Source: a virus
Direction: 5' to 3' (one strand)
IMG/VR virus record: IMGVR_UViG_3300044522_000307
Coordinates: 1 to 35,179 of that record
DNA: 35,179 nucleotides
The translations under genes were made by a program, and so were the position numbers. Under the pieces are notes generated by a model, which saw only the letters and a list, made by a program, of their open reading frames with translations, was not told the origin of the DNA and made no database searches. This document shows, piece after piece, positions 4,143 to 21,525 of this stretch (position 1 is the first letter of the stretch; each line of letters begins with the position of its first letter).

Positions 4143-4368
4143 TTACAATGTCCTCATACACTTCTTCACACATCGCCTTGCGGTTTAAAACTAAATCAAT
4201 GATGTCCAACTGGCCTTGGCGAAACTTCAATTGTTGTTCGTCCTTCACCTTGTAGATGTCATTGATAGAGGTTTTAATCTTTTCAAAATCCTCAATGAGA
4301 GCCTTCCAACCTTCGGTAGCCATCATTGAGAATGTTTCTTCGTAATATGTTTGTAACTCAGCGTCCAT
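4126..4368 (-). CDS. Small helical protein between portal and scaffold (80 aa)
   Basis: Start chosen at ATG 4368 (MDAELQTYYEETFSMMATEG) because GGAG lies 9 bases upstream; an upstream in-frame ATG at 4389 lacks a clear site. The protein is almost all alpha-helical by composition, with Glu/Lys/Ile-rich stretches. It overlaps the HNH gene by 11 bases and the zinc-ribbon gene by 17 bases. Similar short proteins occur next to portal genes in other podoviruses (recalled). Function unknown; a head-assembly accessory is possible. Confidence 0.78.
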   Translation of the reverse strand: MDAELQTYYEETFSMMATEGWKALIEDFEKIKTSINDIYKVKDEQQLKFRQGQLDIIDLVLNRKAMCEEVYEDIVNETNI

Positions 4369-4774
4369 CTGATTTCTCCAAATAATCAACCATTTTTACC
4401 AGCAAAGCAGTATTGTCTTTTACTGCACCTAAAGTAACATTACAACGAGTACATAGGAGTCCTCGTACTTTACCTGTTGTGTGGCAATGGTCAATAGCGA
4501 GGCGTCTATATTCGCCTTCTTTCCAATTATTTAGAGTAGTTTCTGCTTCGTTACAAATTGCACATTTATTTTCCTGTGTTTCAACAAGAGTTAAATACTG
4601 TTCTTTAGTTACCCCGTACTTTGATTTAATTTGATTAAAAAAGTATTTCTCTGGGTTATCTAAGTACCATTTTTTAGCTCTAGCTGAAGCACATACTTTA
4701 CACAGATGACCCTTATTTGTTGATTTAGGGTGCTCTGTTGTTTTACACTGTGGGCACGGAAACTCTTTATCCAT
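4358..4774 (-). CDS. HNH endonuclease, endonuclease VII-like
   Basis: 138 aa. Two N-terminal CxxC pairs (CPQC, CKVC) are followed by a basic linker and the segment KYGVTKEQYLTLVETQENKC. The core is CAICN ... LAIDHCHTTGKVRGLLCTRC, with the D-H-C-H and C-x2-C residues expected for the phage recombination endonuclease VII family (PF02945). Such proteins either resolve branched DNA before packaging or act as homing endonucleases. It lies among the head genes and is more AT-rich than its neighbours, which favours a mobile or homing origin. A second member of this family lies at 17762-18184. Confidence 0.88.
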   Translation of the reverse strand: MDKEFPCPQCKTTEHPKSTNKGHLCKVCASARAKKWYLDNPEKYFFNQIKSKYGVTKEQYLTLVETQENKCAICNEAETTLNNWKEGEYRRLAIDHCHTTGKVRGLLCTRCNVTLGAVKDNTALLVKMVDYLEKSDGR

Positions 4775-9987: not shown

Positions 9988-10041
9988 GTGGCAATTCTGC
10001 CAAGCAAAGCCGATAGGCTTAAAAGTATAGGAACCCATACA

Positions 10042-10689
10042 ATGATCCGCATATCAAACACTTCTAAACTAAACGCCCGCTCATGGAGCTTGCAAGCCTT
10101 GGAAACGTGCCCGGGCAGCTTGGCTTCTCCCGGTGTTTTGGTTGACGCTTGCAAGGGATGTTATGCAACCACGGGAAATTACAATTACCCTAATGTAAAA
10201 GCTCCAAGGGCTGAGAATAAGACAGATTGGCAGCGTTTAGAATGGGTTTCAGATATGGTTGCGGAGCTTGAAAACGATAGATTTTTCCGTTGGTTCGATA
10301 GCGGTGACATTTATTCGCTTGGCTTGGCGGAGAAAATTCTAGAAGTAATGGTTCAAACCCCATGGTGCAAGCACTGGTTGCCTACTCGTATGCATAAATT
10401 CCCTAAGTTCGCCATGGTGCTAGCTGAAATGCAAGCCTTGGACAATGTAATGGTTCGTTTCTCCAGCGATAGCATTGTGGGCGAATATATCGAAGGTTTA
10501 CATGGCAGCGTTATCGGGGCGGATGCTGAAACCTTCCAAGCTAGGGAAGGTGTACAATTGTGCGAAGCCTATGCACATGGCGGGAATTGTAACGGATGCC
10601 GGGCTTGTTGGTCGAAAACAGTGCCAGTGATTGCTTACCCGGCACACGGGCGCAAAATGCTGAAGGTTATCCGCATCATGTCAGCTTGA
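10042..10689 (+). CDS. GP88-like cysteine-rich protein
   Basis: 215 aa from ATG 10042 (MIRISNTSKLNARSWSLQAL), preceded by AGGAA; a GTG at 9988 would begin right after the hairpin and is less likely. Cys23, Cys37 and Cys40 (CPGS ... CKGCYA) form an N-terminal cluster, and a second cluster lies near the C-terminus (VQLCEAYAHGGNCNGCRACW). The middle carries FFRWFDSGDIYSLG and WLPTRMHK. This layout matches the phage family Gene product 88 (PF17338), recalled to resemble radical-SAM or Fe-S proteins. The chemistry is unknown. It is one of the larger proteins of the early region, isolated by hairpins on both sides. Confidence 0.78.
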   Translation: MIRISNTSKLNARSWSLQALETCPGSLASPGVLVDACKGCYATTGNYNYPNVKAPRAENKTDWQRLEWVSDMVAELENDRFFRWFDSGDIYSLGLAEKILEVMVQTPWCKHWLPTRMHKFPKFAMVLAEMQALDNVMVRFSSDSIVGEYIEGLHGSVIGADAETFQAREGVQLCEAYAHGGNCNGCRACWSKTVPVIAYPAHGRKMLKVIRIMSA

Positions 10690-13319: not shown

Positions 13320-14903
13320 ATGACTGAAAGTAAACTATTATCTAAAGGGCCATGTCCTGATTGTGGGTCGTCTGACGCTTGCTGCACTTATGACGATGGA
13401 CACACCCATTGTTTTAAATGCAACACCACTAAATCAGGAGCTAAGGGCATGAGCCTATCGGCGAGTCCTAGTCCTGGCAAACCAAAAGAGAAACTTATGG
13501 AAAACTTACAGCCGAAAGGCGAAATTAAGGGCATTGCTGACCGAGGCATCACCCGCAGCACCTGCGAACGCTACAAGGTTTACACCGAGGCCGACAAGCA
13601 GCATTACAGCTACAAGAATGGCATTAAGACAAGGGTTGTCGCTACTAAAGAGTTTTTTAGTACCGGAAAGCTAGACACCCTGTTTGGTCAGGAGCTGTTC
13701 CCCACTGGTGGTAAGACAGTGACTATCACTGAAGGTGAGCTGGACGCTCTAGCAGCCTTTCAGATGCAAGGAAGCCTCTACCCTACTGTCTCAGTGCCAA
13801 ATGGCGCAGCAGGGGCTTTAAAGGCTTGTAAACAGGCTTTTGAATGGCTAGACACCTTTGACCTAGTGGTGGTGTGCTTTGATGGGGATGAGCCGGGGAT
13901 TAAGGCAGCAAGGGAAGTGGCAGACCTGTTCGCAGGTAAGAGCAAAGTTATGAAGCATATTGATGGCTTTAAGGATGCTTGCGACTACTTGGTGGCAGGG
14001 AAGGGGAAAGAGTTTGTAAACGCTTGGTGGAAGGCAGAAGAACATAGACCGGAAGGCATTGTAAGCGTCCATGACATTATGGACAGGCTTCTTGCTCCTC
14101 CAGTGGAAGGTGTGCCGTGGGCATTCCCAACATTGACGCAGCTCACCTATGGGCGGCGCAAGGGCGAGCTTTATGGCTTTGGTGCAGGGGTTGGTGTTGG
14201 CAAGACAGATGTGTTCACCCAACAAATTGCTTATGACATTGATGTTCTGAACGAGAAGGTAGGGGTTATTTACCTAGAGCAGAATGTCGTAGAAACTGCA
14301 CAGCGAGTAGCGGGTAAGCTAGACAAACGGCTATACCACATCCCTGATGCTGGCTGGACACGAGAGCAATATGAGCAGAGCATTGAGAGCTTGGATAAGC
14401 GTGGGCAGCTGTACATGATGGAGCACTTCGGTGCTATGGATTGGGCAAGTGTGAAGAAAATCATTCGTTATTTCGCTAAGGCGTATGACATTAAGATGAT
14501 TTATTTAGACCACCTGACAGCGTTGGCAGCTAATGAGCAGGACGAACGGAGAGCTTTGGACGGCATCATGGCAGACATGGCCTCCCTTGCACAGAGCGAT
14601 GGGCTAATCATCCACTTTGTGTCTCACCTCACCACACCGGAGGGGAAGGCACATGAGGAAGGCGGCAGGGTGCTGGAGAAGCACTTTACAGGCAGCAGAG
14701 CCATTGCCCGATGGAGCCACTATATGTTCGGCTTAGAGCGTAATAAACAGGCAGAAGACCCTATTGTGCGTCAAACCACAACATTTAGGGTGCTGAAAGA
14801 CCGCTTTGCTGGAAGTGCTACTGGTGAGAAGTTTGGAATATGGTATAATAGAAGCACAGGGATTTTAGAAGAGAAACCTCTTAATGTATTGGAAGAATTA
14901 TGA
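13320..14903 (+). CDS. DNA primase-helicase (T7 gp4-like)
   Basis: 527 aa, close to T7 gp4 in length. The N-terminal zinc site is C12-x2-C15 ... C31-x2-C34. A TOPRIM primase domain follows (VTITEGELDALAAFQ, then VVVCFDGDEPGIKAA). The C-terminal RecA-like DnaB-family helicase has Walker A GAGVGVGKTD, then VGVIYLEQNV, a Walker B-like IYLDHLTAL, and FVSHLTTPEGKAHEEG. It unwinds DNA at the fork and makes primers for the phage polymerase. It heads the replication block. Confidence 0.94.
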   Translation: MTESKLLSKGPCPDCGSSDACCTYDDGHTHCFKCNTTKSGAKGMSLSASPSPGKPKEKLMENLQPKGEIKGIADRGITRSTCERYKVYTEADKQHYSYKNGIKTRVVATKEFFSTGKLDTLFGQELFPTGGKTVTITEGELDALAAFQMQGSLYPTVSVPNGAAGALKACKQAFEWLDTFDLVVVCFDGDEPGIKAAREVADLFAGKSKVMKHIDGFKDACDYLVAGKGKEFVNAWWKAEEHRPEGIVSVHDIMDRLLAPPVEGVPWAFPTLTQLTYGRRKGELYGFGAGVGVGKTDVFTQQIAYDIDVLNEKVGVIYLEQNVVETAQRVAGKLDKRLYHIPDAGWTREQYEQSIESLDKRGQLYMMEHFGAMDWASVKKIIRYFAKAYDIKMIYLDHLTALAANEQDERRALDGIMADMASLAQSDGLIIHFVSHLTTPEGKAHEEGGRVLEKHFTGSRAIARWSHYMFGLERNKQAEDPIVRQTTTFRVLKDRFAGSATGEKFGIWYNRSTGILEEKPLNVLEEL

Positions 14904-15076: not shown

Positions 15077-15325
15077 ATGAACCAAGAACTAATTATTGAA
15101 TTAGCCTTTAAAGCTGGTTTTGTAGAGTATGAGCTGGATGATGGAACTACCGCTGCTTTTGACAAGCGTTATGAAAAGTTTGCCGCCCTAGTAGCAGCAG
15201 CCGAGCGTGAGGCGTGTGCAAAAGTGTGTGACCAACTAGACGAGGACTTTGAGGGGCCAGACACTTGGGATTGGCATTCCAAAGATTACGCAGCCGCCAT
15301 CAGAGCAAGAGGAGAAACGAAATGA
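15077..15325 (+). CDS. Small protein, unknown (82 aa)
   Basis: Starts MNQELIIELAFKAGFVEYEL, with AAGGA upstream. The middle (AALVAAAEREACAKVCDQLD) and end (DYAAAIRARG) match a very common type of short phage protein with an AAAEREACAKVC-like helix. The role of that family is not known to me. It couples by ATGA to the next gene. Confidence 0.75.
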   Translation: MNQELIIELAFKAGFVEYELDDGTTAAFDKRYEKFAALVAAAEREACAKVCDQLDEDFEGPDTWDWHSKDYAAAIRARGETK

Positions 15326-15468
15326 ACTTATACGAAGTATGGACAGAGCGAGGCACATACGAATACGAAGCAGAGAACGCAGACGAGGCTCTCGACAAGT
15401 ATTACGATGAGCATAACGGCTCAGGAGACTACGAGGTGGTAGTGGAGCTGATGGAAGAAAACCTGTGA
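15322..15468 (+). CDS. Small protein, unknown (48 aa)
   Basis: Starts MNLYEVWTERGTYEYEAENA, then ADEALDKYYDEHNGSGDYEV. The ATGA overlap sets the start; GAGG lies upstream. The strand-helix-strand pattern is like the 60-aa protein at 11267. Function unknown. Confidence 0.68.
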   Translation: MNLYEVWTERGTYEYEAENADEALDKYYDEHNGSGDYEVVVELMEENL

Positions 15469-15495: not shown

Positions 15496-16065
15496 ATGCT
15501 TATTTACATTGCAGAGTCTAAAGAACAGAAAGATGTTGCAAATAACATAGTGATGAAGTTTCACAGCTATGTAAAAAGCCCTCGAACTGTTGGTAGATGT
15601 ATCAAATACTTAATTGAAGATGATAATGAAATTGTTGGAACATTTTGGCTTGGTAGTGGTTTTAAGCCCACTCCAAAAGCAATTCTGAACTATATGGACA
15701 TGGGACAAAAACAGTTTGATTTAATCTTTAATGAAGTGGCTGATAACAAACGATTCTGCATGGCAAAGAGCATTCCAAATTTTGGTAGTCAGGTCTTAAA
15801 GGAAATAAGAAACAGGGCAAAAGCAGACTGGTTCAGGTTGTATGGAAACAATTTACAGGCTATTGTCACTACGATTGGTAACGACAAAAAGGGAAGCGTA
15901 TACCTTGCAGACAATTGGGTAAAAATTGGTGAAACAGCTGGACTACCTGCAAACAGAAAGTCAGTAAGTATGAAATGGGACGATGCCGAAGGAATCAAAG
16001 AAAAGTATGCAAAACCCACTGGAGAAAACAAGAAAACAATTCTTATAACCAAACGACTTTTTTAA
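15496..16065 (+). CDS. DruA/Mom-like protein, candidate DNA-modification enzyme
   Basis: 189 aa. The order of motifs matches, from memory, the DUF4338 (Druantia DruA) and phage Mu Mom group, which share a GNAT-like fold: VGRCIKYLIEDDNEIVGTFW, then FNEVADNKRFCM (compare NNTRFLI in DruA proteins), then FGSQVLKEIRNRAKADWFRL, then KGSVYLADNWVKIGETAGLP (compare GTxYxAANWxxxGxTxG). Mom modifies adenine in phage DNA to block restriction; DruA is part of a bacterial defence system. The gene sits between primase-helicase and polymerase genes and is more AT-rich than both, as for an acquired gene. Only its C-terminal half aligns well by eye, so the assignment to either subgroup and the reaction are inference. 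Confidence 0.65.
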   Translation: MLIYIAESKEQKDVANNIVMKFHSYVKSPRTVGRCIKYLIEDDNEIVGTFWLGSGFKPTPKAILNYMDMGQKQFDLIFNEVADNKRFCMAKSIPNFGSQVLKEIRNRAKADWFRLYGNNLQAIVTTIGNDKKGSVYLADNWVKIGETAGLPANRKSVSMKWDDAEGIKEKYAKPTGENKKTILITKRLF

Positions 16066-16077
16066 ACGAGAAACAAC

Positions 16078-17790
16078 ATGAGGCTCATCCTCGACATTGA
16101 GACAAACCTAGCCCATACTAAAATATGGCTTGTATGCACGAAGAACATTGACACCGGAGAGAAGAAAACATGGAAAGAAGCAAGCAGCCTGTCGGACTAT
16201 TTAAAGGACGCTACTCAAGTTATAGGCCAAAACATATTGGCGTTCGATGCACCGATGTTGAAAGCTATTTGGAAGATAGAGATAGCTACGAGCCTCTTGT
16301 ACGATACGTTGATAGTAAGTCGGCTGTTAGAGCCGAGCAAAGAGAATGGTCATTCATTAGAAGCGTGGGGAAACAGGCTAGGGACACAGAAGACAAGCTA
16401 TAGCTCTGCTTGGTCGTGGTTGATGGGACGCAGGGAGGAATACAAGGGGGAGTGCTTCGATAGTCCTCACCTTGGTCTCCTGGAAAACTATTGCCAGCAA
16501 GACTGTGAGGTGACACACAAGCTATACGAGCATGAGCTTCAAGAGCTTGTAGAGAAGGGCTTTAGTGAGCAAAGTGTGCTGTTGGAGCACGAAGTGGCTC
16601 TCATCATTGCTGAACAGGAACGGAACGGCTTTAAACTGGATATACCATATGCAACCTGCCTACTTACTGACATCAAAGGAAAATTGGATGCTTTATATGA
16701 ACAAATGCAAGAACGATGGCCTCCTGTCGTCATTAAACGAACCAGCGACAAAACTGGAAAGCCTCTCAAAGATGGGTTGGCTTCTTTTAATCCCGGCAGC
16801 AGGAAGCAAATTGGAGAAAAGCTCATTGAGCTTGGATGGAAGCCTGACAAGCACACAGAAACCGGACAGCCCATAGTCGATGAAGGTGTGTTGTCGAAGA
16901 TAGACCTGCCGGAAGCAGCTCCCATTGTGGAATATTTGATGCTACAGAAGCGTGTGGCTCAAATAGAAAGCTGGTTGGAGGCTGTAGGCAAAGACGGAAG
17001 GGTACACGGCAAGGTGGTTACTAACGGAGCTGTAACAGGGCGTATGACGCACAGCAGCCCCAACATGGCACAGATACCGAATGCAGGGAGTGTTTATGGC
17101 CCTGAGTGTCGTGAGTGCTGGACAGTCGAAGACGGACAGGTATTGGTAGGAATTGATGCTAGTGGTTTAGAGCTACGAATGTTGGCTCATTACATGAAGG
17201 ACAAGAACTATGTCAGAACAGTATGTGAGGGAAGCAGCAAAGAAGGTACGGATGTACACACAATCAATCAACGAGCAGCTGGACTACTTACTCGTGATAG
17301 CGCAAAGACTTTCATCTATGCCTTTTTATATGGAGCTGGAGATGCAAAAATTGGTAGCATCGTTGGAGGAAACGCTCGAAAGGGTGGAGAGCTTAAAAAG
17401 CGATTTCTCTCACAGACACCAGCTCTAGCCAAGCTCATAGCTAGAGTAGCATCTTATGCTGCCAACGGCGATGTACCGGGCTTAGACGGAAGGAAGATTT
17501 GGATACGCTCTGAACACGCAGCCTTAAACAGCTTGCTGCAAGGGGCAGGGGCAATTGTTATGAAGAAGGCTTTGTGCATCTTTTACAACAAATGCAAGGA
17601 AAATTCTTTAAAAGTTAAGTTTGTTGTGAACTGCCACGATGAATTTCAGTTAGAATGTTCTCCTGAGATAGCCGAAATAGTAGGTAAAACAGGTGTACAA
17701 TGTATCCAAGAAGCAGGTGAGTTCTATGGCTTGCGTTGTCCACTAACAGGGGAGTATAAAATTGGAAAATCGTGGAGAGATACCCACTAG
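16078..17790 (+). CDS. DNA polymerase, family A (T7 gp5-like)
   Basis: 570 aa. The 3'-5' exonuclease domain has D6-I-E8 (MRLILDIETN), QNILAFDAPM (exo II) and YCQQDCEV (exo III), so proofreading residues are present. The polymerase domain has motif A GIDASGLELRMLAHYM, motif B RDSAKTFIYAFLYGAG and motif C VNCHDEFQLE. It is about 130 residues shorter than T7 gp5, whose thumb insertion binds host thioredoxin; whether this enzyme uses a host processivity factor cannot be told. It replicates the phage genome together with the primase-helicase and SSB. The end overlaps the next gene by 29 bases. Confidence 0.95.
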   Translation: MRLILDIETNLAHTKIWLVCTKNIDTGEKKTWKEASSLSDYLKDATQVIGQNILAFDAPMLKAIWKIEIATSLLYDTLIVSRLLEPSKENGHSLEAWGNRLGTQKTSYSSAWSWLMGRREEYKGECFDSPHLGLLENYCQQDCEVTHKLYEHELQELVEKGFSEQSVLLEHEVALIIAEQERNGFKLDIPYATCLLTDIKGKLDALYEQMQERWPPVVIKRTSDKTGKPLKDGLASFNPGSRKQIGEKLIELGWKPDKHTETGQPIVDEGVLSKIDLPEAAPIVEYLMLQKRVAQIESWLEAVGKDGRVHGKVVTNGAVTGRMTHSSPNMAQIPNAGSVYGPECRECWTVEDGQVLVGIDASGLELRMLAHYMKDKNYVRTVCEGSSKEGTDVHTINQRAAGLLTRDSAKTFIYAFLYGAGDAKIGSIVGGNARKGGELKKRFLSQTPALAKLIARVASYAANGDVPGLDGRKIWIRSEHAALNSLLQGAGAIVMKKALCIFYNKCKENSLKVKFVVNCHDEFQLECSPEIAEIVGKTGVQCIQEAGEFYGLRCPLTGEYKIGKSWRDTH

Positions 17791-18184
17791 GCATTGCGTC
17801 GATTGTGGTATAATATCTGAGACTCTTTCTTTATTTGTTAAAAGTAAAGTGAGTAAATATGGAGTTAGAAATCTTTGTATCTCGTGTGGCGTTAAGCGAA
17901 CAACATCGTATGCGAAATATAAGGACTGGAAAACTGACCATCAAACGAAGAAGCGTTACGGCGTAGATGTAGAGACATATAAAAGACTCATGTCTACTAG
18001 TAATTGCTGTCAAATTTGTGGTAACATGGAGGAATTGTGCTACGACCACTGTCATAGTACAATGAAATTTAGAGGTATTCTTTGTAGGGGATGCAATCGT
18101 TCTTTAGGTCAACTGGGTGACAACCTAGATGGGATAAAGAAAGTTGTGGCTTACTTAGAACGAGAAAATATTGAAACACATTGA
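17762..18184 (+). CDS. Endonuclease VII-like HNH protein
   Basis: 140 aa from a TTG start (17762) preceded by GGGGAG; no in-frame ATG lies before the first zinc pair. CVDCG and CISCG form the N-terminal pairs. The catalytic region is CCQICG ... LCYDHCHSTMKFRGILCRGC, with the D-H-C-H and C-x2-C residues of the endonuclease VII family (PF02945). It may be the Holliday-junction resolvase of the replication block or a homing endonuclease inserted after the polymerase gene. It is related to the protein at 4358-4774 (both have KYGV/RYGV, then a D-H-C-H core, then CxxCN). Confidence 0.87.
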   Translation: MENRGEIPTRHCVDCGIISETLSLFVKSKVSKYGVRNLCISCGVKRTTSYAKYKDWKTDHQTKKRYGVDVETYKRLMSTSNCCQICGNMEELCYDHCHSTMKFRGILCRGCNRSLGQLGDNLDGIKKVVAYLERENIETH

Positions 18185-18631: not shown

Positions 18632-19329
18632 TGGCTCTGCCTCCTAAACCAACGGAGGCTGTCATTGATGCCGACTTCTTGGTCTATTCCGTTGCCTTCT
18701 CATGTAAAGATGTAGAGGAACAATGGGCTAAGAATCGGCTCACTGAATGGCTGACCGACATGGTGTACATTCGTCTCAAATGTACTGATTACAAGGCGTT
18801 CATCACTGGTAAATCAAACTTCCGGTATGACCTAGCTAAGACAGTGCCTTACAAGGGGAACAGGAAAGATGTAGAGAAGCCTGAACATTACGAGGCTTTA
18901 AGAAAGCACCTAACACGGCTGGAGGCTGTAACAACAGAGGGTGAAGAAGCTGATGATGCTGTTGGCATTGAAGCAAACGGCAAGAGCGTGTGGATTGTTC
19001 ATGTGGACAAAGACCTAGACCAACTACCGGGGTGGCATTACAACCCTGTAAAGGACTTGGAATATTTTGTAACCGAACAGGAAGGACTCAAGAGCTTCTA
19101 TTTGCAAATGCTGACAGGAGACCGAATTGACAACATCCAAGGGCTTAAAGGCATTGGGCCTGTAAAGGCTGCTAGGCTGCTCAAGGGGCTGACAGGCGAC
19201 AAGGAGATGTATGAGGCTGTTGTAGAGGCTTATAAGGCTGCTAAAGAGCCTGTAGAGCACATCTTAGAGAACGGACAGCTGTTGTGGCTACGGCGTGAGA
19301 AAGGACAGACATGGCAACCTCCAGCGTAA
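18631..19329 (+). CDS. 5'-3' exonuclease (T7 gp6-like, FEN/PIN fold)
   Basis: 232 aa. Acidic residues of the FEN-type active site are visible in VIDADFLVYS (residues 11-20), GEEADDAVG, VHVDKDLDQLPG and LTGDRIDNIQG. The last is followed by a helix-hairpin-helix GLKGIGPVKAARLLKG. It removes RNA primers and degrades DNA from 5' ends during replication and recombination; T7 gp6 is the model. It overlaps SSB by TAATG and the HNH gene by 19 bases. Confidence 0.9.
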   Translation: MALPPKPTEAVIDADFLVYSVAFSCKDVEEQWAKNRLTEWLTDMVYIRLKCTDYKAFITGKSNFRYDLAKTVPYKGNRKDVEKPEHYEALRKHLTRLEAVTTEGEEADDAVGIEANGKSVWIVHVDKDLDQLPGWHYNPVKDLEYFVTEQEGLKSFYLQMLTGDRIDNIQGLKGIGPVKAARLLKGLTGDKEMYEAVVEAYKAAKEPVEHILENGQLLWLRREKGQTWQPPA

Positions 19330-19697
19330 GGAAGTACAATGGAGGGGAATGGACGGAGGCTCGCTTCAAGAGTTTTGTTGTGTCGGCATTACGAACAGCA
19401 ACACAGAGGTGGCCTCCTAAATATGCTGTCTTAGATGCTGCGTTTACACAGAGGAAGACCAATGTGAAGACAGGGAAACTTGCTAAACACTTTGAGTGCA
19501 ACGCTTGTAAAGGCGAGTTTGTAGCTAAAGAGGTGCAGGTTGACCACAAGAATCCAGCTGTAGACCCAAAGAAGGGATGGCAAGGATGGGACACATTCAT
19601 TGACAGGTTGTTCTGTGAGGAGCCAAACCTACAAGTGTTGTGTAAGCCCTGCCATGTCATCAAGAGTGCTAAGGAAAAGGAACAAAGGAAAAAATAA
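19311..19697 (+). CDS. HNH nuclease-like protein
   Basis: 128 aa. The core is CNACKGEF ... VQVDHKNPAVDPKKGWQGWD ... LQVLCKPCHVIKSAKEKEQ. It has two CxxC pairs, the DH dyad and the final H of the HNH fold. Proteins of this type in T7-like phages sit near the exonuclease gene and are often called HNH or endonuclease-like without a known role. TAATG couples it to the next gene. Confidence 0.85.
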   Translation: MATSSVRKYNGGEWTEARFKSFVVSALRTATQRWPPKYAVLDAAFTQRKTNVKTGKLAKHFECNACKGEFVAKEVQVDHKNPAVDPKKGWQGWDTFIDRLFCEEPNLQVLCKPCHVIKSAKEKEQRKK

Positions 19698-20920: not shown

Positions 20921-21110
20921 CAAACAATATATCTCTCTTTCTTCCTTATCGAATGAAGATGGAGTTTATACTGTTCTTTGTCCTTGTGGTCAAAGACATC
21001 GACATAGTGAGAATAGTAATAAACCGTTTTTAAGAGTTAGTCACTGTGACTTACATATAACTTATTGGGTTGTACCCACAAAGGAAAATAATGAACAAAG
21101 CACAATATAA
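20907..21110 (+). CDS. Small Cys/His-containing protein (67 aa)
   Basis: Starts MDLSNKQYISLSSLSNEDGV; CPCGQRHRH and SHCDLH hint at a small metal site. It overlaps the phosphoesterase end by 14 bases and the next gene by 20 bases. Function unknown. Confidence 0.6.
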   Translation: MDLSNKQYISLSSLSNEDGVYTVLCPCGQRHRHSENSNKPFLRVSHCDLHITYWVVPTKENNEQSTI

Positions 21111-21525
21111 AGAAAGCTGCTCTCGACTAGGAGTGCCATATTATGAAGAAGATTATTATGAGAAAACACGAGAATATATCCGTAGCATATTGGAGCAACC
21201 CATGAGCGAGAAAGAGGAAAATAAAACTTTTGGTGTTAAGTTTGACATGGGCAAGCCTCAGTGGTCATTAGTCCCTCCTGGGCCAATGGAAGAAGTTGTA
21301 GAGGTGCTCACCTATGGTGCTAACAAATATAGCCCTGATAATTGGCAGCACGTTGATGACCCTGACACTCGTTATTTCAATGCTGCTATGCGTCACATTT
21401 GGGCATGGCGACAAGGAGAGCAATTTGATACTGAAAGCCATAAGAGCCATTTAGCACACGCTGTGTGTTGCTTGCTGTTCTTGATGGCTTTTGATGAAGA
21501 CGCAGAAGATGACAGTGCTTTTTGA
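21091..21525 (+). CDS. dATP/dGTP diphosphohydrolase-like protein (DUF5664)
   Basis: 144 aa from ATG 21091 (MNKAQYKESCSRLGVPYYEE), preceded by AAAGGAAAATA. The core reads VKFDMGKPQWSLVPPG, VLTYGANKYSPDNW, RYFNAAMRHIWAWRQGEQFD and SHLAHAVCCLLFLMAF. This is the signature of the DUF5664/PF18909 family, related to MazG-like nucleotide pyrophosphohydrolases and to MazZ of cyanophage S-2L. It probably adjusts dNTP pools by cutting dNTPs to dNMPs. The next large gene is the ribonucleotide reductase, consistent with nucleotide metabolism. No PurZ-like gene is present. Confidence 0.82.
   Translation: MNKAQYKESCSRLGVPYYEEDYYEKTREYIRSILEQPMSEKEENKTFGVKFDMGKPQWSLVPPGPMEEVVEVLTYGANKYSPDNWQHVDDPDTRYFNAAMRHIWAWRQGEQFDTESHKSHLAHAVCCLLFLMAFDEDAEDDSAF

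What the first reader, a model, noticed from the sequence alone, without database searches (positions are those of the whole stretch)
15496..16065. Phage-encoded DruA/Mom-like protein inside the replication block
The C-terminal half keeps, in order, the landmarks I associate with DUF4338 (DruA) and Mom proteins: YLIEDDNEIVG, ADNKRFCM, a Ser-x-Val-Leu helix ending in DWFRLYG, and KGSVYLADNWVKIGETAG. Mom converts adenine to a modified base that blocks restriction. DruA belongs to the Druantia defence system and its role is poorly known. A short stand-alone version between primase-helicase and polymerase suggests DNA modification coupled to replication. The gene looks AT-richer than its flanks, as if acquired.
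Basis: partly seen in the sequence, partly recalled or inferred. Interest (0 to 1): 0.78.

Follow-up and report, generated by a model that had tools for sequence, protein, structure and literature searches.

The report
Phage DruA/Mom-type acyltransferase as swappable cargo
An uncultured water phage carries a recently acquired gene, sitting between its DNA-copying genes, for a small enzyme related to the bacterial defence protein DruA and shaped like phage Mu's Mom, so it probably decorates DNA bases to dodge restriction; this points to what the poorly understood DruA domain may do.

Summary
The ORF is real: 15496-16065 (+), 189 aa, 12 bp before the polymerase gene. The DruA/Mom resemblance is also real. 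The protein alone misses the Pfam DruA threshold, but a profile of bacterial DUF4338 proteins hits it at 61 bits, its family profile aligns to DUF4338 at E 1e-18 and to Mom at E 4e-10, and its AlphaFold2 model (pLDDT 90) is a GNAT fold whose top VIA-align match is Mu Mom (8bv8, Z 15.1). Mom's His48, Tyr49, Arg101, Ser114 (the residue mutated in the inactive 8bv8 protein) and Tyr149 map to conserved residues. Mom's invariant Asp139 is Gly or Ala in all 23 aligned family members. By sequence and tree it belongs with DruA/DUF4338, not Mom. The family is common in uncultured viral contigs but had no significant match in 50,697 phage records. Here it is swappable cargo: the close relatives carry other genes in the slot. 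In T4-like contigs it often sits in the replication block, and in 9 loci beside a true Mom gene. Most likely it is a DNA-base acyltransferase giving restriction resistance; that function is inferred. Against it, GATC avoidance is not relaxed in this phage.

The parts
15496..16065 (+). DruA/DUF4338-type GNAT-fold acyltransferase, 189 aa
15562..15570 (+). codons of H23-S24-Y25, equivalent of Mom H48-Y49 (His in all 55 aligned proteins, Tyr in 54)
15787..15789 (+). codon of S98, Ser/Thr in all groups; equivalent of Mom S114, the residue replaced by Ala in 8bv8 ('inactive mutant S124A')
15877..15879 (+). codon of G128, at the position of Mom's invariant D139; Gly/Ala in 23 of 23 members of this family
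15901..15903 (+). codon of Y136 in the YxAxNW motif, equivalent of Mom Y149; at the usual GNAT alpha-4 tyrosine position (general knowledge)
13320..14903 (+). DNA primase-helicase, upstream side of the block
   Evidence: phrog_239, E 1.1e-158
15077..15325 (+). 82-aa ORF of unknown function inside the variable slot
15322..15468 (+). 48-aa ORF (MNLYEVWTERGTYEYEAE...) kept in several close relatives; marks the upstream edge of the swappable slot
16078..17790 (+). family A DNA polymerase, starts 12 bp after the gene; downstream edge of the slot

Best explanation
The gene encodes a stand-alone, single-domain GNAT-fold acyltransferase of the DruA/DUF4338 family, a sister group of Mom. It most likely binds an acyl-CoA in the loop before the long helix (S91-S98), uses the His/Tyr/Ser/Tyr set shared with Mom (H23, Y25, S98, Y136), and transfers a small acyl-derived group to a base in DNA. 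Made together with the replication proteins, it would mark phage DNA so that host restriction enzymes do not cut it. It is accessory cargo acquired by a few members of this phage lineage. Shown: ORF, homology, fold, conserved residues, purifying selection, cargo status. Inferred: CoA use, DNA as substrate, restriction protection. Unknown: which base and which group; loss of Mom's Asp argues against assuming Mom's exact product.
For: Bacterial DUF4338 HMM hits P0001 at 61 bits. Family profile versus DUF4338: prob 99.1, E 1e-18; versus Mom: prob 96.7, E 4.2e-10. 33 of 39 relatives match Pfam DruA at E <= 1 (best 6.9e-23) and 11 match Pfam Mom. AlphaFold2 pLDDT 90, pTM 0.84 with GNAT strand order. 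Best VIA-align match is Mom 8bv8_A, Z 15.1, 166 residues aligned, next GNAT 14.1; Foldseek puts Mom at rank 2, E 7.7e-6. A second model, of a bacterial DUF4338 protein, has Mom as top hit by both methods (Foldseek E 2.9e-7; Z 14.7). Active-site mapping, including the residue mutated in inactive Mom. Basic protein, pI 9.5, and all 23 aligned family members have pI 8.9-9.9. In 9 loci a true Mom gene (PF25680; the members scanned gave E about 1e-44) is directly adjacent on the same strand, overlapping or 3 bp away, upstream in one subfamily and downstream in another. Replication-module neighbours in several phage types: between gp33-like and gp59-like genes in T4-like contigs, beside DnaB-like helicase, beside helicase and exonuclease, beside thymidylate synthase. 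The lineage is under restriction-like pressure: GATC 2 found, 61 expected.
Against: No activity or modified base has been shown for any DUF4338 protein that I could find. Mom's invariant D139 is missing. GATC and CGCG are as avoided in this phage as in its closest relatives without the gene, so the gene has not relaxed restriction avoidance, though it may be too recent. The reverse association is weak: only 1 of 120 Mom loci drawn by motif has a weak DruA-like hit nearby. A GNAT fold fits many substrates, and Mom's lead over ordinary GNATs is only about 1 Z unit. P0001 alone has no Pfam DruA hit.
Confidence: 0.57

Rival explanations
1. It is an acyltransferase acting on a host or phage protein, or on tRNA, as a host-takeover factor.
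For: The fold is a generic GNAT and nearly all listed PDB matches other than Mom are protein, polyamine or drug acetyltransferases with Z only slightly lower. Phage GNATs that acetylate host RNA polymerase are described (PMC7824862).
Against: Sequence profiles point to DruA and Mom. Adjacent Mom genes in 9 loci. Setting among DNA replication genes.
Confidence: 0.22
2. It is a counter-defence decoy: a phage copy of DruA that interferes with a host Druantia system, without needing catalysis.
For: Same family as DruA; phages do carry homologues of defence proteins, including DruA-like ones in Synechococcus phages (PMC12774648).
Against: His, Tyr, Ser/Thr and Tyr catalytic-type positions are kept across the family; several relatives sit next to a Mom gene; DUF4338 proteins also occur outside Druantia, in insertion elements.
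Confidence: 0.08
3. It is a DNA-recognition or recombination accessory, as DUF4338 may be where it is fused to ISAs1 transposases or placed next to integrases.
For: Bacterial DUF4338 fused to a DDE transposase (L133) and next to an integrase and IS91 transposase (L132).
Against: No transposase gene next to this one; the slot swaps whole small genes; conserved active-site-type residues.
Confidence: 0.07

Closest known systems
DruA / DUF4338 family (PF14236), incl. Druantia type I DruA and insertion-element DUF4338 proteins
   Same: Homologous over most of the protein: hhalign E 1e-18, HMM 61 bits; shared H.Y, N-x-(G/A)-S/T, T-F/T-V/I, YxAxNWxxxGET motifs; same clade apart from Mom.
   Different: Single domain of 189 aa without the N-terminal helical region seen in the bacterial model; Gly at the DruA/Mom Asp position; phage-specific C-terminus (GLPxxKSxSMKW...KPTGENKK); no Druantia partner genes.
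Mom of phage Mu (PF25680, PHROG 1384, PDB 8bv8), which makes N6-methylcarbamoyl adenine (PMC8281217)
   Same: Best-matching solved fold; His48, Tyr49, Arg101, Asn111, Ser114, Tyr149, Ala151, Asn153 positions conserved; basic protein.
   Different: 11% identity in the structural alignment; invariant Asp139 replaced by Gly; E98-L99 replaced by (N/D)-N; Mom's C-terminal His173 and Tyr207 without clear equivalent.
DruA-like proteins of six Synechococcus phages (Phold paper, PMC12774648)
   Same: Phage-encoded proteins with DruA-like predicted structure (TM-score 0.73, 12.7-17.1% identity to DruA).
   Different: No sequence match to this family was found in the 50,697 phage records at the thresholds used, so this clade is separate or very distant.

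Membership tests
DruA/DUF4338 (PF14236) | Pfam DruA model reached at its curated cut-off (27 bits) by this protein | tested here: not met
   P0001 alone: no DruA hit at E <= 10; relatives at 44-50% identity do pass, e.g. L027 38.8 bits, L014 30.7 bits
DruA/DUF4338 (PF14236) | Homology to bacterial DUF4338 proteins across the domain | tested here: met
   HMM of six bacterial DUF4338 proteins hits P0001 at 61.3 bits, E 3.7e-17; hhalign prob 99.1; tree
Druantia type I defence system | Partner genes, above all the large DruE helicase | tested here: not met
   Largest window ORF 751 aa; no Druantia hit in PADLOC among the window proteins scanned
Mom (PF25680) | GNAT fold with Mom as nearest structure | tested here: met
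   8bv8_A Z 15.1, rmsd 3.3, 166 aligned; Foldseek E 7.7e-6
Mom (PF25680) | Recognised by Mom sequence profiles | tested here: inconclusive
   PHROG 1384 E 8.7e-5, but no Pfam Mom hit and no hit with my 13-sequence Mom HMM
Mom (PF25680) | Invariant residues H48, Y49, S114, D139, Y149 | tested here: not met
   All kept except D139, which is Gly128 here and Gly/Ala in the whole family
Mom (PF25680) | N6-methylcarbamoyl adenine in DNA | not testable with these tools
   Needs nucleoside mass spectrometry
GNAT superfamily | GNAT strand-helix order with CoA loop before the long helix | tested here: met
   Secondary structure and fold matches; CoA binding itself not tested

The most novel reading that the evidence does not exclude
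The short phage clade is a new kind of DNA-base acyltransferase with chemistry different from Mom (conserved active-site-region Asp lost) that acts alongside Mom in some phages, and by homology the DruA protein of Druantia is itself a Mom-type nucleobase-modifying enzyme.
Probability: 0.27. Interest if true: 0.78.

Novelty: new variant of a known kind. Interest (0 to 1): 0.52.

Why it matters
DruA is known as a defence component whose job is unclear. Finding that DUF4338 proteins and Mom share fold, active-site-type residues and, in some phages, an operon gives a direct, testable idea of what the DruA domain does. The clade seems widespread in uncultured phages yet missing from the phage records searched, so a possible DNA modification may have been overlooked. 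The small, single-domain phage version is a convenient protein for the experiment.

Tried and rejected
Direct Pfam, NCBIfam and PADLOC searches with P0001 gave no useful hit; the T4 IPI and type III methyltransferase matches are chance-level. Phage records: only weak, partial hits to Arthrobacter phage Wayne and a Microbacterium phage, the former across gene boundaries, dismissed. Bacterial genomes: the single-sequence scan failed; the profile scan found 7 loci, most of them distant DUF4338 proteins. A second modification gene in the window was sought with a Mom profile: none. Relaxed palindrome avoidance as a sign of modified DNA was tested and not seen. General association of Mom with DruA-like genes was tested from the Mom side and not seen (1 of 120), so the pairing is a minority trait. 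Papers joining DruA or DUF4338 with Mom: none found in the library. The main paper on the Mom active site is not held, so Mom residue roles other than the S124A mutant rest on conservation.

Full report
WHAT IS THERE. The window (a 35,179-base uncultured virus record) holds an open frame at 15496-16065 (+), 189 aa. It lies between a DNA primase-helicase (phrog_239) and a family A DNA polymerase (phrog_17) whose closest cultured relatives are Pelagibacter phages HTVC103P and HTVC104P at about 47% identity. The gene has the lowest GC (0.363) of the 31 window genes compared.

RELATIVES. The single protein gives only PHROG 1384 'Mom-like' (E 8.7e-5). A degenerate DNA pattern for its YxAxNWxxxGETxG motif in viral contigs fetched 120 loci. 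The encoded proteins were recovered. About 80 align over most or all of their length at 40-76% identity, and others follow at 27-35%, then Mom-like ones. The pattern selects for the motif, but the alignments extend well beyond it. The nearest, L001/L143, is 99% identical and comes from the same phage type. In 50,697 phage records nothing matched significantly, so the clade is essentially known here only from uncultured material.

FAMILY. Of 39 diverse members, 33 match Pfam DruA at E <= 1 (best 6.9e-23) and 11 match Pfam Mom (best 1.7e-4); relatives at 44-50% identity to P0001 pass the DruA cut-off. Keeping the P0001 family apart from the targets: against six bacterial DUF4338 proteins hhalign gives prob 99.1, E 1e-18; against 13 Mom proteins prob 96.7, E 4.2e-10. 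An HMM of the bacterial proteins hits the window ORF at 61.3 bits, while the Mom HMM does not reach E 1e-3 anywhere in the window. In a 55-sequence tree the phage groups and bacterial DUF4338 fall together apart from Mom.

STRUCTURE AND ACTIVE SITE. The model (pLDDT 90, pTM 0.84) has the GNAT order. VIA-align ranks Mom 8bv8_A first (Z 15.1, rmsd 3.3, 166 aligned; next 14.1), and Foldseek ranks it second (E 7.7e-6). A separate model of a bacterial DUF4338 protein (L131) gives Mom first with both programs (Z 14.7; E 2.9e-7). In a joint alignment Mom His48 corresponds to H23 (His in all 55), Tyr49 to Y25 (54 of 55), Arg101 to R86, Asn111 to N95, Ser114 to S98 (Ser or Thr in every group), Tyr149 to Y136, Asn153 to N140. 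Mom Ser114 is the residue changed to Ala in the 8bv8 'inactive mutant' (one search shows Ala there). Mom Asp139, invariant in 13 Mom proteins and Asp or Glu in the bacterial set, is Gly/Ala in all 23 members of this family. So the machinery is largely shared but one conserved acidic residue is gone, and the C-terminus differs. I therefore do not file it as a Mom, and I do not predict Mom's exact product.

GENOME SETTING. Eighty loci were fetched with the polymerase. Only the window and L143 carry the DruA-like gene. In relatives whose polymerase is 83-94% identical, the slot between a 48-aa ORF and the polymerase holds a 56-aa ORF, an unrelated 139-143-aa ORF, or a 139-aa plus a 109-aa ORF. 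So this is swappable cargo that is under purifying selection. Elsewhere the family occurs in other replication or nucleotide settings: in T4-like contigs directly after a gp33-like late regulator in 23 loci and before a gp59-like helicase loader in 14 (10 have both); beside a helicase and an exonuclease (L109), a DnaB-like helicase (L057), thymidylate synthase (L102) or terminase (L118). In nine loci a Mom-family gene is the immediate neighbour on the same strand (PF25680 E about 1e-44 for L026, L045 and L063). Starting from Mom instead, only 1 of 120 loci has a weak DruA-like hit.

FUNCTION. Taken together, the most likely role is acyl-CoA-dependent modification of a DNA base to block restriction. 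This rests on homology and context; no activity is shown. A caution: GATC is almost absent in this phage (2 found, 61 expected), CGCG is absent (0 of 25) and ACGT is depleted (16 of 82); GATC and CGCG are equally avoided in close relatives lacking the gene. The lineage is thus under restriction-like pressure, which makes an anti-restriction gene plausible, but the gene has not relaxed that avoidance, as expected if it is recent, partial in effect, or not anti-restriction at all.

NOVELTY. DruA-like proteins in phages have been noted by structure (PMC12774648), and Mom enzymes in phages are known (PMC7824862). What appears new here is the abundant short clade, its missing Asp, its pairing with Mom, and the fold and active-site link between DUF4338/DruA and Mom, which I did not find stated in the papers searched. 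The library misses most subscription journals, so this is not proof of priority.

Noticed in passing
L026:7298-8510, L063:1335-2544, L075:2372-3593, L121:7690-8914, L055, L028:4899-6426, L045:4951-7233, L104:7385-9670, L066: A true Mom-family gene (PF25680) directly next to a DruA-like gene on the same strand, upstream in one subfamily and downstream in another; L045 and L104 have two Mom genes in tandem after it.
   Followed up: partly
L133:3884-5218 and L132:5608-8810: Bacterial DUF4338 domain fused to an ISAs1-type DDE transposase (PF13808, PF01609), and a free-standing DUF4338 gene next to an integrase and an IS91 transposase, on plasmids of Candidatus Thiodictyon.
   Followed up: partly
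window 1-35179: Extreme avoidance of some palindromes: GATC 2 of 61 expected, CGCG 0 of 25, ACGT 16 of 82; ACGT depletion is shared by L143 and L142 but much weaker in slightly more distant relatives, suggesting a lineage-specific restriction pressure.
   Followed up: partly
L144:5146-5577, L148:3134-3553, L149:2396-2821, L150:5598-6017: An unrelated 139-143-aa gene (MTTTWN.DAFG...) without PHROG match (L144 tested) occupies the same slot before the polymerase in sister phages; possibly alternative anti-host cargo.
   Followed up: no
window 21070-21525: MazG-like protein matching phrog_801 (dATP/dGTP pyrophosphohydrolase), a family linked to 2-aminoadenine genomes, but no adenylosuccinate-synthetase-like (PurZ) gene was apparent in the ORF list.
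   Followed up: no
window 4358-4774 (-), 17762-18184 (+), 19311-19697 (+): Three HNH-type endonuclease genes (the third tested with PHROGs, the others by eye); the first two share the unusually low GC of the DruA-like gene, as for mobile cargo.
   Followed up: no
window 9988-10689 (+): GP88 protein (PF17338, phrog_1392), function unknown, alone at the edge of the early region.
   Followed up: no
L126:3004-3699 (+): A 44%-identical relative on a contig binned to a Bacilli genome from horse faeces, showing that the family also reaches gut habitats.
   Followed up: no
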